Shown: positions 30,901 through 32,615 of the stretch, one piece after another
Layout of the letters: each line of letters starts with the position of its first letter
Numbering within the stretch: the stretch's first letter is position 1
NCBI GenBank assembly: GCA_038501625.1
Contig: JAZAYU010000062.1
Span: forward strand, 3,262,460-3,326,459
Direction of reading: 5' to 3'
DNA: 64,000 bases
Source: Corbicula japonica
Taxonomy: Eukaryota > Mollusca > Bivalvia > Venerida > Cyrenidae
Notes under the pieces: model-generated
What the model was told of the DNA's origin: nothing
Database searches by the model: none
What the model saw: the letters and a program-made list of their open reading frames with translations, nothing else
Program-made: the position numbers and the translations under genes

Positions 30901-32510
30901 TAAGATATTTGTAATATTTAGAACTAGTGTAAACTCAAACCGGATAATCTATTTACGATGTCTTTATTTTCGTCAACTGAAATGGAAAGCATCCTTAATT
31001 CAGCACTTAAATGATCATTCGTCGACATTTTATTTACTCAATAAGATGAAAAGGGAACCTTGAAAGACACCGAACACAACAAATATGAAAATATTGCAGG
31101 CTCTGTTTGATTGAGTCTGTTTATGAGCAGTAATGGAAATGCATATTACTGCCCACGCCGCATAACCCCGGGATGAGCGCAACTCAATATTAACAACAAT
31201 AAACGGTACAATTTTATCCATCCCAAACGATGGTATACATATGGCGGTGAAAAATGAACCTTCAATGCGGTATTAATATATATTATATTACTTTAATTTA
31301 TATTATATTTAAAGTCAATCGATGAGACTACGGTGGAGCGTTTCCAAGCACAGCTCAAGAAAGTCGTGTACCGCATAACTGGTGCCATCAACAGTAGACA
31401 AATATCAAGCGCAGCACTTACAGCAGTTACTGAAGTAATAGTGGAAACATCTCTACATGACGAGGACGAAGGTAAGAAAAATTACTTATTTAAATAATTG
31501 AATGTGAATTTCGCCTCAAAGTTAACAGCTTTAAAAAAACTCCTAATTTATTTTTCTTTAGAAAGATTCAATATTCAATAAAATGCCCCCGTTAGAGTTT
31601 GCCCCACGTGGCACACTGCATTGCAGATGCGATACGCTATATAAGACACGAATTGTCAATTCACAAGATATTCACTAACCGTCCGGTTTTAAATGAAAAC
31701 TGCTACCAGACATTGTCAATGCTTTATTATTTCAGTTTTAAAAGATAACTTTAAAGGAATGAAGCGAACACAAACAGAGAAATAATAATAAAATAAGGAA
31801 CACTAAATCGGACGAAAGTCGTTTCTCGAAAAAAAAATTGGAATTTCCCCAGAACAGTTTAAATGTTACTCTGAACGCTATAAACGCAATTTATGGTTTG
31901 TCTTCAGCAAGAAAAAATATAATGACATATTCATAACTTCATTTTAAATTATAACAAAAAATGTTGTTTTAATCAAAATTGTCATTTTTTACTTGTTTAC
32001 TTATTTTCAGATGAGAAATATCTCGTCCCGGTCATATGCTCATTGATAGTTATACTGGGGTGTGTGGCAATTATTTTGCTGGTAATATGGCATAAAAGAC
32101 AGACTCAAGAAAATATCCGTCGTTTGAGTAAGTCAACTGACTTTACTGAAGAGCGAACAAATAATGCCGATGTAGACAATCTGAAAAACCTAAGGAGATA
32201 CAAAAATCCACTTTATGAAAAAGATAAAATTTCTGGCAATCGAAATGTTAAGCCAAAACATTATCGTGAATTCGATCATTACAAACAGTTTGAACCGGAA
32301 ATGGACGAACATGAACGGAGTGACACGAGACTTCTGAGGCAAGATGATTTTATACCCGGTTCAAATGACTGGCCGGAACATGTTCAGGCGAGGACACGAG
32401 TGAAGGACACAAATATTGAACTGCAGAAATCCAGGTACCAACCAAACGCAACTGCGTTTTCTGGTTTGATACACGGTCACGATTTCGATGACACCGAAGT
32501 TATTGTATAA
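9812..32510 (+). CDS. JAG: Jagged/Serrate-type Notch ligand (gene span, 21 exons, 5' incomplete)
   Basis: This is a type I membrane protein that activates Notch on neighbouring cells. Exons: 9812-9914, 10987-11135, 11628-11688, 12340-12473, 13165-13296, 16308-16421, 18825-19052, 19522-19568, 20242-20415, 21019-21166, 21704-21868, 22160-22273, 22756-22869, 23301-23414, 23902-24046, 24383-24468, 24906-25144, 25461-25721, 26031-26165, 31315-31471 and 32011-32510. All phases join without a frameshift, giving about 1105 residues: DSL (about 35-84), 16 EGF repeats (84-712), a VWC-like cysteine-rich region (713-842), a juxtamembrane domain, a membrane helix (about 946-968) and a tail. The 16 EGFs plus cysteine-rich region distinguish Jagged/Serrate from Delta. 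CxxxxS/TC O-fucose sites occur in EGF4, 5, 6, 9, 11, 13, 14 and 16. The signal peptide and most of MNNL are missing from what I can read. Confidence 0.95.
9940..10190 (-). mobile_element. tRNA-derived SINE, minus strand, single unit
   Basis: A clean single copy. On the minus strand it begins near the TAGCGCTATGAGTGCAGTGT segment (10185), then the body with CAGTACTATTATCAGTGAAT, then the tRNA-like part, and ends with GGTAGAGGAAATATCATTT. Frames at 9853-10086 are translations of it. Confidence 0.82.
10987..11135 (+). CDS. JAG: Notch ligand exon: DSL domain
   Basis: The exon encodes RVLCDEHYFNTTCTKFCQPR and then NDGLGHYTCNTNGDKVCMEGWLGAEC, with the six DSL cysteines in canonical spacing and the signatures KFC, GHYTC and GWLGAEC. 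DSL binds Notch EGF11-12 in known ligands. Acceptor TTTGCAG, donor GTAAGT. It enters with one base of a split codon and leaves with one. The predicted reading in another frame (starting at 10992) is a shadow. Confidence 0.96.
11628..11688 (+). CDS. JAG: Notch ligand exon: first half of EGF1
   Basis: A 61-base exon encoding AICKTGCHVLHGSCDQPGEC, the first half of the atypical EGF1 that follows DSL in all canonical ligands. Acceptor TTTTTTAAAG, donor GTAAGT. The AA left at its end is completed by A of the next exon to give Lys. Confidence 0.92.
12055..12300 (-). mobile_element. R1 copy, minus strand
   Basis: The reverse complement carries the R1 landmarks. On the plus strand GGTGCACCCTATGGCATAGA precedes GGTTTAAACCCCC, and AAACACATGCTTACATATCC lies further on. 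It is one of only two minus-oriented R1 copies, in the intron between the ligand's EGF1 exons. Confidence 0.7.
12340..12473 (+). CDS. JAG: Notch ligand exon: end of EGF1 and all of EGF2 (DOS region)
   Basis: The exon encodes KCGFGWQGSLCDRC and then IPYPGCKHGTCKDSPWTC. The PGCxHGxC pattern with NWGGxLCD at the end is the DOS-type EGF2 that cooperates with DSL in Notch binding. The donor GTATGT is followed about 40 bases later by a long TA microsatellite. Confidence 0.95.
12516..12614. repeat. (TA)n microsatellite, about 99 bp
   Basis: An uninterrupted alternation of T and A, about 42 bases inside the intron after the EGF1-2 exon. Length is likely to vary between individuals and to be hard to assemble. 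Confidence 0.95.
13165..13296 (+). CDS. JAG: Notch ligand exon: EGF3
   Basis: One complete EGF repeat with six cysteines: LNTCRHKPCQNDGMC, then a YTCVC motif and GFSGRDC. It lacks the Ser/Thr needed for O-fucose before the third cysteine. Acceptor TTTTAACAG, donor GTAAAT. Confidence 0.94.
14241..14630. mobile_element. MITE-like element with about 58-bp terminal inverted repeats
   Basis: The first roughly 58 bases, starting AACATTGCAAATGGCGAAAA, recur inverted at the right end (about 14573-14630) with few differences. Both arms include a GAATTTTGGGGG-type block. The 390-bp length and lack of coding capacity fit a non-autonomous DNA transposon. I saw no second copy in the window. Confidence 0.75.
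15125..15530 (+). mobile_element. R1 copy, long form
   Basis: It runs from GGTGAAATATGCATATCAGG through CACCAACCTCACACTTGCCC to ATGTTGCATGCAAAAGCACA and CTAAAGGGCGCGTACTCAAG. It shows that R1 is longer than the commonly retained 250 bp. Confidence 0.8.
16308..16421 (+). CDS. JAG: Notch ligand exon: EGF4
   Basis: A 114-base exon encoding one EGF: DDPCSSNPCTHGGSCLQ and then CNCQQGWTGETC. CSSNPC fits the O-glucose site CxSxPC, and CTHGGSC fits an O-fucose site. Acceptor TTTTTCAG, donor GTAAGC. An overlapping frame starting at 16110 is a shadow. Confidence 0.95.
17011..17706. mobile_element. 0.7-kb foldback element flanked by TTAA
   Basis: The two halves are inverted copies of each other, about 300 bp per arm. 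The left end reads TTAAGGGCTTGCCACACTCC and the right end is its near-exact reverse complement, closing CAGGCCCTTAA. A TTAA target is typical of piggyBac-type integration, so this may be a piggyBac-related MITE, although those usually start CCY (inference). Partial copies lie at 45988-46430 and 50118-50360. Confidence 0.8.
18825..19052 (+). CDS. JAG: Notch ligand exon: EGF5 and EGF6
   Basis: Two complete EGFs in one exon. INECESQPCLHGGTC opens EGF5 and NECIGSPCVNAYTC opens EGF6. Both carry an O-fucose consensus. The NEC openings suggest calcium-binding EGFs. The donor GTACGT is weaker than its neighbours, but the phase fits the next exon. Confidence 0.95.
19522..19568 (+). CDS. JAG: Notch ligand micro-exon: first half of EGF7
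   Basis: A 47-base exon encoding NIQDCFGQCLNGGQCI, with acceptor TATATTTCAG and donor GTAAGT. The phase-0 exit joins the next exon at DLVNGYSCLC to complete six cysteines. In this EGF the spacing between the first and second cysteines is shortened (CFGQC). Confidence 0.9.
19680..19830 (+). mobile_element. R1 copy, 3'-truncated
   Basis: The first 150 bp of R1 (AAAAAGTGAAATATGCATAT onward) in the intron splitting EGF7. An R2 copy on the minus strand follows at 19935-20105. Confidence 0.75.
19935..20105 (-). mobile_element. R2 copy, minus strand
   Basis: The reverse complement shows TTGCGCTCAACCC, the CAGTACTGCCCATGAACAG hairpin region and AGACCGAGCCTG. Diverged but colinear with other R2 copies. 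Confidence 0.65.
20242..20415 (+). CDS. JAG: Notch ligand exon: second half of EGF7 and all of EGF8
   Basis: The exon encodes DLVNGYSCLCLPGFEGQNC and then HECDRNPCLNGGKC to GFSGSTCQ. An intron therefore interrupts EGF7 in its middle loop, whereas most other EGFs here are bounded by introns. The exit is phase 0 at a CAG/GTACTA donor. Confidence 0.94.
21019..21166 (+). CDS. JAG: Notch ligand exon: EGF9
   Basis: The exon encodes IDTDPCSPNPCLNGASC, DYFCYCSDDFTGKNC and then EHRKTVITQ. The DYFC and GKNC motifs and the charged linker match EGF9 of vertebrate Jagged. Acceptor TTTTCTAG, donor GTAAGT. A palindromic element begins only about 30 bases downstream. Confidence 0.95.
21197..21344. mobile_element. 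Palindromic element copy 2, near-perfect with about 70-bp arms
   Basis: The left arm runs from GGGTTGAAGGTTATAAAACT to the central GGCGACCAGTCGCC, and the right arm is its almost exact reverse complement to CCTTCAGCCC. It would form a long hairpin in the pre-mRNA about 30 bases after the EGF9 donor. An R1 copy on the minus strand abuts its right end. Confidence 0.92.
21347..21500 (-). mobile_element. R1 copy, minus strand, truncated
   Basis: The plus strand reads GGGGCAAGTGTGAGGTTGGT then GGTTTAAACC, the reverse complement of the R1 3' half. It directly follows the palindrome. Confidence 0.75.
21704..21868 (+). CDS. JAG: Notch ligand exon: EGF10 with the long Jagged-specific first loop
   Basis: The exon encodes NIDSCTLSIPNSQMVGGVQL, then VSSGICGNYGLC and GFTGDFC. 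The extended spacer between the first two cysteines of this EGF is diagnostic of Jagged/Serrate. It supports orthology rather than a generic EGF protein. A poly-T acceptor tract precedes it; donor GTAAGC. Confidence 0.95.
21967..21998. repeat. (TAA)n microsatellite
   Basis: About ten TAA units in the intron between the EGF10 and EGF11 exons. Confidence 0.9.
22160..22273 (+). CDS. JAG: Notch ligand exon: EGF11
   Basis: One calcium-binding-type EGF: DINDCASNPCHNSGTC, CICADGWEGALC. It carries both an O-glucose (CASNPC) and an O-fucose (CHNSGTC) consensus. It is 114 bases long, like the EGF4, 12 and 13 exons, which suggests exon-duplication history. Confidence 0.95.
22756..22869 (+). CDS. JAG: Notch ligand exon: EGF12
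   Basis: One EGF: NKNDCDPNPCRNQGNC, CQCPSGWKGKTC. It lacks the O-fucose Ser/Thr. Acceptor TTATTTTAG, donor GTAAGA. 114 bases. Confidence 0.95.
23301..23414 (+). CDS. JAG: Notch ligand exon: EGF13
   Basis: One EGF: DSQCDVFTCANGGTC, CKCPSGWEGNTC. CANGGTC is an O-fucose site. The acceptor TTCAAAACAG has a weak pyrimidine tract, but the phase and domain fit are exact. 114 bases. Confidence 0.94.
23902..24046 (+). CDS. JAG: Notch ligand exon: EGF14 and start of EGF15
   Basis: The exon encodes SCDMSPCKNNGTC to GFEGRMC, then NINECNPFP, ending on two bases (TG) that make the second cysteine of EGF15 with T of the next exon. Donor GTTAGT. Reading through the donor gives a misleading Trp. Confidence 0.93.
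24383..24468 (+). CDS. JAG: Notch ligand exon: rest of EGF15
   Basis: An 86-base exon encoding CYNGGKCVDGINRYTCEC and GFSGPDC. It restores the cysteine split at the junction. Acceptor CTGTTTTAG, donor GTAAGT. Confidence 0.93.
24906..25144 (+). CDS. JAG: Notch ligand exon: EGF16 and start of the cysteine-rich (VWC-like) region
   Basis: The exon encodes NINECLSSPCTFGSTC to GRSGTHC, then SCMFNRRSFRSGVTWKNDC and YTCDDGD. The second half corresponds to the start of the VWC-like domain in Jagged (a Cys, an aromatic/Arg segment, TWxxDC). It exits in phase 0 at GAG/GTATAA, a weaker donor. Confidence 0.95.
25461..25721 (+). CDS. JAG: Notch ligand exon: cysteine-rich region core
   Basis: The exon encodes LPCGPENC, CPGDEVCIVQKDSTCFTPPC and LPWGRCQPRNLLPV, then NCAKVTMIFDKANVPI. 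The CGPxxC, CPxGxxC and CxxPPC pattern and the following aromatic/Asn-Cys-Ala block match the Jagged cysteine-rich region, which Delta proteins lack. 87 codons, phase 0 on both sides. Confidence 0.95.
26031..26165 (+). CDS. JAG: Notch ligand exon: juxtamembrane domain, first part
   Basis: The exon encodes GVTVEEICMAIQRL and a VALTCSLSANNP segment. It aligns in order with the Jagged block containing EEICxxL and the ACxxS motif upstream of the membrane. 45 codons, phase 0. It is followed by the largest intron of the gene (about 5.1 kb). Confidence 0.92.
26330..26540 (+). mobile_element. R1 copy, strongly degraded
   Basis: Colinear but diverged matches: CACAGCCAACAAAAAGACAG, AGAACTGTCAGTGGAAATAT and GTAAACCAGATTCATGGGTG. 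Confidence 0.5.
27597..27672 (-). other. tRNA-like sequence (Gln-CTG-like anticodon), minus strand
   Basis: On the minus strand, box A TAGTGTATTGG and box B GGTTCAAAAC flank an anticodon arm with loop CTCTGAA (anticodon CTG). A run of seven T follows at once, as in a Pol III terminator. The stems contain mismatches, so a tRNA pseudogene or SINE head is more likely than a functional tRNA. Confidence 0.5.
28513..28565 (-). other. Partial tRNA-Val-like sequence, minus strand
   Basis: GCTCGCTTCACACGCGAAG matches the anticodon arm of tRNA-Val (CAC), and AGTTTCAATTCTC resembles box B. The D-arm is lost. A degraded tRNA-derived fragment. Confidence 0.4.
29140..29375 (+). mobile_element. R2 copy
   Basis: A full-length-looking copy: GATGAAAAGGGAACTTTGAA, TTGCAGGCTC...GAGCCTG hairpin, GTAGTAATG...CATATTACTGCC hairpin, then ACTCAATATTTACACCAATA and CCATCCCAAACGATGGTATG. 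Confidence 0.85.
30080..30330 (-). mobile_element. tRNA-derived SINE, minus strand, single unit
   Basis: Minus strand: body with GTCAGTACTGTTATCAGTAA, GGGGGTTGTCCCGGCTAGCT, then box A, and box B GGTTCGCTCCC in CGGGTTCGCTCCCAGCTAAA. The copy ends in a T-rich run. Minus and plus frames across it (30023-30378) are not genes. Confidence 0.85.
31040..31262 (+). mobile_element. R2 copy, immediately upstream of the juxtamembrane exon
   Basis: Colinear with 29140-29375, ending about 50 bases before the exon at 31315. A polypyrimidine-poor acceptor follows (TATTTAAAG). Confidence 0.85.
31315..31471 (+). CDS. JAG: Notch ligand exon: juxtamembrane domain, second part
   Basis: The exon encodes SIDETTVERFQAQLKKVVYR and then ISSAALTAVTEVIVETS. 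It corresponds to the Jagged segment with a helix followed by a SLIAAVAEVRV-like strand, just before the membrane. Donor GTAAGA. Confidence 0.92.
32011..32510 (+). CDS. JAG: Notch ligand last exon: membrane helix and cytoplasmic tail
   Basis: DEKYLVPVIC leads into a roughly 23-residue helix (LIVILGCVAIILLVIW), then a basic stop-transfer HKRQ. The tail of about 135 residues is rich in charge (Lys/Arg, Asp/Glu) and ends DDTEVIV followed by TAA at 32508-32510. The terminal E-x-I-V resembles the MEYIV end of vertebrate JAG1, a hydrophobic PDZ-binding tail. The last 105 bases of the frame are repeated directly downstream, described separately. Confidence 0.95.

Positions 32511-32615: not shown

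What the first reader, a model, noticed from the sequence alone, without database searches (positions are those of the whole stretch)
32406..32615. In-frame duplication of the Notch ligand tail that may be a newborn intron
The last 35 codons including the stop are repeated in tandem with a period of exactly 105 bases. Eleven of 13 differences are at third codon positions, and both copies end EVIV-stop. This is the pattern of two constrained coding copies, not a decaying 3' UTR. The first copy contains CCAG|GTACC and the second TCTAG|CTACC at the homologous place. Splicing them removes exactly 105 bases (32435-32539), keeps the frame and ends in the second EVIV. Intron birth by tandem duplication of an AGGT-containing segment is a proposed mechanism, and this locus has its form. 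Stop readthrough is the alternative use.
Basis: partly seen in the sequence, partly recalled or inferred. Interest (0 to 1): 0.78.

Follow-up and report, generated by a model that had tools for sequence, protein, structure and literature searches.

The report
Doubled Jagged tail beyond stop codon
In a clam-like animal the end of a Notch-ligand (Jagged) gene is duplicated, and the second copy beyond the stop codon has evolved as if it had long been translated, most simply because the protein once carried both copies and was later cut back by a new stop codon.

Summary
A 105-base tandem repeat (32406-32510 / 32511-32615) doubles the last 35 codons, stop included, of a bivalve Jagged gene. Of 13 differences 11 are at third codon positions; dN is about 0.04, dS 0.55-0.61. 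Ten other tandem arrays of the window show no such phase bias. Simulation gives the pattern in 0 of 1500 runs if copy 2 was never translated, 0 of 1500 under constitutive splicing, about 20% if both were translated. So the duplication is old, not 'newborn'. Four relatives have one tail. Best reading: an in-frame doubled tail, long translated, cut back by a recent stop at the junction (0.4). RNA reads would decide; none were available.

The parts
9812..32507 (+). Jagged/Serrate-type Notch ligand gene, well-modelled part (DSL domain, EGF repeats, cysteine-rich region, transmembrane segment, tail); earlier exons of the model (457-7837) are short and uncertain
   Evidence: spliced alignment of P0001 to the window, 21 GT-AG introns from 7838 on, no in-frame stop in the translation; Pfam DSL, EGF, EGF_DL_JAG, JAG1-like_EGF2 above cut-off, JAG1 below its cut-off
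32011..32510 (+). last coding exon: transmembrane segment and cytoplasmic tail, first stop TAA at 32508-32510
32406..32510 (+). copy 1 of the repeat: DTNIELQKSRYQPNATAFSGLIHGHDFDDTEVIV*
   Evidence: aligns with the single tails of four relatives
32511..32615 (+). copy 2, beyond the first stop: VTNIELQKSSYQSNATAFSGLIHGHEFDDTEVIV*
   Evidence: dN/dS against copy 1 about 0.05-0.07 by three methods
32508..32510 (+). junction codon TAA: either the duplicated original stop or a later nonsense change of the repeat's Lys codon (AAG in copy 1)
   Evidence: three-way junction comparison; the choice is inference
   Evidence: scores 2.4 + 4.2 bits
32128..32511 (+). another candidate intron, found here (384 bases): donor TGA|GTAAGT, acceptor TATAAG|TC; would give a short-tailed ligand ending in copy 2
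   Evidence: scores 8.2 - 1.4 bits, best sum of the 21 in-frame pairs enumerated; donor third of 231 exonic GTs

Best explanation
A 105-base segment (35 codons, KDTNIEL...EVIV) at the 3' end of the Jagged coding region was duplicated in tandem and in frame, so that the protein carried the tail block twice. Both copies were translated and kept under purifying selection for most of the time since. Later the Lys codon that opened the second repeat became TAA, which restored the ancestral end (...EVIV*) and left the second repeat as a recently dead stretch of 3' UTR. Shown here: the repeat, its codon-phase signature, single tails in four relatives, no second locus found in the assembly. Inferred: the order of events and the late stop. 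The broader claim, that copy 2 was translated for most of its history by whatever route, I put at about 0.85.
For: 11 of 12 differences from 32409 on are at third positions; dN about 0.04 (0.029 by one method) against dS 0.55-0.61. With copy 2 neutral throughout, 0 of 1500 runs reach the pattern; in another script 1 of 4000 reach 11 thirds, and 0 of 4000 with at most 3 amino-acid differences as well, in each of two settings. With both coding about 20%; with copy 2 dead for the last 10%, 7.7%, for 20%, 4.1%, for 50%, 0.07%. The unit is a multiple of three without indels, needed if translation ran through it, not needed for splicing at homologous sites. The junction codons GTA-TAA-GTC can be laid on copy 1's GTG-AAG-GAC. 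The four relatives have K and D before N-I-E and R after S; copy 2 has lost K, D and R, as expected of a stretch set free. No readthrough or splicing has to be assumed. Other tandem arrays lie just downstream (32848-32950, 33197-33633).
Against: The junction bases fit a duplication that included the stop better: TAAG at the junction equals TAAG after copy 2 (4 of 4), while AAG to TAA takes two changes from copy 1's codon; AAG-GAC and TAA-GTC agree at 3 of 6 bases. An EVIV end lying inside the protein would be expected to drift, yet copy 1 keeps it: if it was free, it stays unchanged in 10-21% of runs, and the whole pattern comes in 2.2-12.7%. No relative with an uninterrupted doubled tail was found: 2 hits of 449 candidates, 4 of 78, 0 of 39; could see only proteins of about 110-352 residues. 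DNA of close relatives was not available in the tools.
Confidence: 0.4

Rival explanations
1. Stop codon readthrough: the duplication included the stop; a fraction of ribosomes reads TAA at 32508 and makes a ligand with two tail blocks, both ending EVIV, so both copies stay constrained along their whole length.
For: Copy 2 constrained along its length, first 8 codons included; both-coding simulation about 20% at omega 0.07, 4-48% over omega 0.15-0.03. Both EVIV motifs would be true C-termini. TAAG is identical at both copy ends. Unit length a multiple of three.
Against: TAA followed by G. [quoted passage not shown] The 100 bases from the stop fold no better than shuffles (z 0.11). Copy 2 lost residues invariant in the five aligned sequences.
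Confidence: 0.18
2. Alternative splicing of a 384-base intron inside the last exon (32128-32511), proposed here: it joins the juxtamembrane segment to copy 2 (...ENIRRL-I-TNIELQKSSY...EVIV*), giving a short-tailed ligand; unspliced RNA gives the full tail ending in copy 1.
For: Best summed score of the 21 in-frame pairs enumerated; donor third best of 231 exonic GTs; length within the range of the 21 real introns. It makes copy 2 coding from its second codon on, and both EVIV motifs terminal.
Against: Found after the fact; a first enumeration with a narrower acceptor range did not contain it. Acceptor weak: -1.4 bits, below 20 of 21 real ones, matched by 37 of 187 exonic AGs. No RNA evidence. 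The product would lose the invariant NLRRYKNPL block.
Confidence: 0.12
3. One reading: alternative splicing of 32435-32539 by duplication of an AGGT segment; both RNA forms give nearly the same protein.
For: GT and AG at homologous places; frame kept. Its form is Rogers's model as described in PMC4974935 (part 1 of 5 read); PMC2891723 (passages) notes that duplications of a multiple of three allow intron retention. Acceptor score 4.2 bits exceeds 7 of 21 real ones and is reached by 10 of 187 exonic AGs. Summed score 6.7 bits; 4 of 21 real introns are lower.
Against: The first 8 codons of copy 2 would never be coding: 2.0-2.4% of runs at omega 0.07. Weak donor, few pyrimidines, 105 bases against at least 291; the homologous AG in copy 1 (32434) scores higher, 6.1 bits. 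Constitutive splicing: 0 of 1500.
Confidence: 0.12
4. Copy 2 came recently from another coding copy (paralog, strongly diverged allele, or assembly error), so its codon pattern was acquired elsewhere.
For: Would explain a constrained pattern in a present-day UTR.
Against: No other locus found in the 1.07 Gb assembly: DNA search 1 match; protein search 3 matches, namely the exon, copy 2 and one chance-level match at E 2.9. The assembly may be incomplete. dS 0.55-0.61 is far above allelic divergence as I recall it (no call). Exact in-frame abutment would be a coincidence.
Confidence: 0.1

Closest known systems
In-frame internal tandem duplication of a coding segment (gene-internal repeats; recalled as a class)
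   Same: 35-codon unit, no indel, both copies constrained, frame kept
   Different: a stop codon now stands exactly between the copies
Intron gain by tandem duplication of an AGGT segment (PMC4974935, PMC2891723)
   Same: GT in copy 1 and AG in copy 2 at homologous places; splicing would leave the peptide almost unchanged
   Different: old rather than recent, both copies coding-constrained, weak donor, no RNA evidence
Stop codon readthrough extensions (PMC5100048)
   Same: constrained open frame right behind a stop, ending in a second stop
   Different: TAA-G context, no stable downstream fold, extension is a repeat of the tail itself
Exitrons (PMC4484396)
   Same: candidate introns inside a coding exon, multiples of three
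   Different: exitrons contain no stop codon by definition; both candidates here contain the first stop

Membership tests
Jagged/Serrate Notch ligand | DSL domain, EGF array, cysteine-rich region, transmembrane segment and cytoplasmic tail | tested here: met
   Pfam DSL 1.5e-19, EGF, EGF_DL_JAG, JAG1-like_EGF2 above cut-off; JAG1 domain weak, 21.3 bits under its cut-off 27; last two exons 59% identical to R. philippinarum 'jagged-1b-like'; N-terminal exons not reliably placed
Jagged/Serrate Notch ligand | conserved C-terminal end of PDZ-binding type | tested here: met
Intron born by tandem duplication | GT and AG from a duplicated AGGT segment at homologous places, frame restored | tested here: met
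Intron born by tandem duplication | spliced RNA | not testable with these tools
   no transcript reads of this species at hand; the best protein hit was 59% identical, so none of its own proteins was seen
Intron born by tandem duplication | intronic part free of coding constraint if constitutively spliced | tested here: not met
   0 of 1500 simulations
Stop codon readthrough | coding constraint on the extension | tested here: met
Stop codon readthrough | leaky context or downstream RNA structure | tested here: not met
   TAA-G; z 0.11; PMC5100048 predicts structures for only 9-10% of candidates, so this does not exclude readthrough
Stop codon readthrough | translation beyond the stop | not testable with these tools
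   no ribosome profiling or proteomics
Exitron | no stop codon inside | tested here: not met
   TAA at 32508-32510 lies inside both candidates; definition from PMC4484396 passages
In-frame coding repeat later truncated | both copies constrained, unit a multiple of three, no indels | tested here: met
In-frame coding repeat later truncated | a relative with the uninterrupted doubled tail | tested here: inconclusive
   none among the 4 relatives found; 39 candidates for the doubled tail, none scored E <= 0.1; no close relative was available

The most novel reading that the evidence does not exclude
Copy 2 is still translated today: one last exon encodes two alternative, nearly identical PDZ-type ends of a Notch ligand, chosen by stop readthrough or by splicing an intron inside the last exon (32128-32511 or 32435-32539). 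The second end has been kept under selection since the duplication, perhaps giving a long-tailed and a short-tailed or double-ended Jagged.
Probability: 0.42. Interest if true: 0.65.

Novelty: new member of a known kind. Interest (0 to 1): 0.42.

Why it matters
A constrained coding copy directly behind a stop codon is either the trace of a recently shortened signalling protein or a present-day switch between two ends of a Notch ligand. Both are decidable with ordinary RNA reads. If an intron proves to be spliced here, source and product of an intron birth would lie side by side, both still readable as protein. If not, the case warns that AGGT plus a tandem repeat is not enough to call one.

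Tried and rejected
Copy 2 as an always untranslated 3' UTR: rejected by codon phase. Constitutive new intron: rejected. Second locus or haplotig as a source: none found. Alternative acceptors for the upstream intron (donor 31472, phase 1): of 7 AGs checked, 32499, 32511 and 32604 keep the frame but would skip the transmembrane segment; not pursued. Relatives that carry the doubled tail: none; the third protein search had 39 candidates and no hit at E <= 0.1. 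Solved structures of the tail: 0 matches at E <= 1. Downstream RNA structure: none. Literature: seven searches; the one for bivalve Jagged with readthrough or tandem duplication listed one tubeworm genome paper, not opened. Papers: PMC4974935, part 1 of 5 of the text; PMC5100048, PMC1965462, PMC2891723, PMC2809761 and PMC4484396, passages only; others seen in listings only. Limits: the splice matrix rests on 21 introns of one gene; the simulations use one transition/transversion setting, start from copy 1 as ancestor, condition on 12 differences, and take omega 0.07 from the data themselves; the priors that rank the surviving explanations are my judgement. The novel-case probability was raised from 0.38 to 0.42 on checking, to equal the sum of its three routes.

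Full report
What is there. The window lies in an unnamed assembly of 1.07 Gb. The gene is a bivalve Jagged-type Notch ligand. Its peptides match Pfam DSL, EGF, EGF_DL_JAG and JAG1-like_EGF2 above cut-off, and JAG1 weakly, below cut-off. Its last two exons are 59% identical to 'protein jagged-1b-like' of Ruditapes philippinarum and 54% to a Mactra antiquata protein (2 hits of 449 candidates). A second search added P0003 (no organism given) and a Mytilus galloprovincialis protein (4 hits of 78 candidates, the first two included). A spliced alignment of the Ruditapes protein to the window gives 21 GT-AG introns from 7838 on, 291 to 5149 bases long, no in-frame stop, and a last exon from 32011 to the stop at 32508-32510. 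The exons before 7838 in that model are short and poorly supported, and I do not rely on them. The first AATAAA or ATTAAA after the repeat, in 32501-35000, is at 33415, so copy 2 probably lies in the transcript.

The repeat. 32406-32510 and 32511-32615 are a tandem repeat of period 105 without indels. Thirteen bases differ, 11 at third positions. Over 33 codons dN is about 0.04 (0.029 by one of three methods) and dS 0.55-0.61; a fourth method gave no value. Uniform scatter would give 11 or more thirds of 12 with probability 4.7e-5. Ten other tandem arrays, out of the 26 overlapping rows, were tested the same way on their ungapped stretches: nine have differences and no phase bias (smallest corrected P 0.11), one has no differences; this repeat gives 0.0001.

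What that excludes. I simulated both copies from copy 1 and kept runs with 12 differences. Copy 2 untranslated throughout: 0 of 1500 reach 11 thirds with at most 4 amino-acid differences. In an earlier script 1 of 4000 reached 11 thirds and 0 of 4000 also had at most 3 amino-acid differences, at each of two omegas. Constitutive splicing of 32435-32539: 0 of 1500. Both coding: 20%. Alternative splicing of 32435-32539, which leaves codons 1-8 of copy 2 never coding: 2.4%, and the pattern within those 8 codons alone 2.2%, against 39% if coding. Both coding with copy 2 released for the last 10, 20, 30 or 50% of the time: 7.7, 4.1, 1.3, 0.07%. Over omega 0.03-0.15 the both-coding figure runs from 48% to 4% and the alternative-splicing figure from 4.6% to 0.4%. 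So copy 2 was very probably translated for most of its life, along its whole length, and it is not young.

Relatives. All four relatives end in one tail: KDINIE...SR...EV(I/M)V. Copy 1 keeps K, D and R; copy 2 has TAA, V and S there. Copy 1 in turn has D where Ruditapes and Mactra have E and copy 2 has E. These are protein records: a copy beyond their stop codons would not show, and DNA of close relatives was not available in the tools. In the own genome no second locus was found: the DNA search gives one place; the protein search gives the exon, copy 2 and one chance-level match.

How it may have come about. Three routes make copy 2 coding over nearly its full length: an uninterrupted doubled tail with a later stop, readthrough of TAA, or an intron that joins an upstream donor to the very start of copy 2. 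The first needs no unusual mechanism and explains why copy 2 lost residues that are otherwise invariant. Against it stand the junction bases (TAAG at both copy ends, AAG to TAA by two changes) and the intact EVIV in copy 1, which would have lain inside the protein (unchanged in 10-21% of runs if free). The second is favoured by exactly these two points, and disfavoured by the TAA-G context (PMC5100048 passages) and the lack of downstream structure. For the third I enumerated in-frame GT-AG pairs with acceptors in 32500-32612: 21 pairs. The 384-base candidate has a strong donor and a usual length but a weak acceptor, and was found after the fact. A TGAC that could serve as branch point lies about 20 bases upstream of its acceptor (read from the sequence printed; motif recalled).

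Its geometry is as claimed and matches Rogers's model as told in PMC4974935. Duplications of a multiple of three allowing intron retention are discussed in PMC2891723, and novel Drosophila introns with weak sites in PMC2809761. Weak sites alone therefore do not refute it; its acceptor score beats 7 of 21 real ones, and 4 of 21 real introns have lower sums. What counts against it is the conserved 5' part of copy 2, the 105-base length and the age.

Verdict. A real, non-random, old coding duplication. Most likely the remains of a doubled Jagged tail that a late stop cut back (0.4), with readthrough (0.18), the 384-base intron (0.12) and the 105-base intron (0.12) open, foreign origin or assembly error at 0.1, and the rest unassigned. 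Transcript reads would settle it.

Noticed in passing
32848-32950 and 33197-33633: Two further tandem arrays (52 bases x 2, 94% matches; 116 bases x 3.8, 81%) lie in the flank just downstream of the doubled tail, so tandem duplication is common here.
   Followed up: partly
35491-36352: 163-base array of 5.3 copies at 96% matches, directly after a long AG-dinucleotide run (35353-35491).
   Followed up: no
55558-62921: Exons of what looks like a second + strand gene: of five open frames scanned, three match Pfam: NIT (nitrate/nitrite sensing), guanylate cyclase catalytic with HNOBA, and guanylate cyclase catalytic.
   Followed up: partly
58917-59149: 24-base array (9.7 copies) between apparent exons of the cyclase gene; open in several frames.
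   Followed up: no
32434 and 32426: AGs inside copy 1 score 6.1 and 4.4 bits as acceptors, as high as many real ones, so the acceptor-likeness of the homologous site in copy 2 is inherited.
   Followed up: yes
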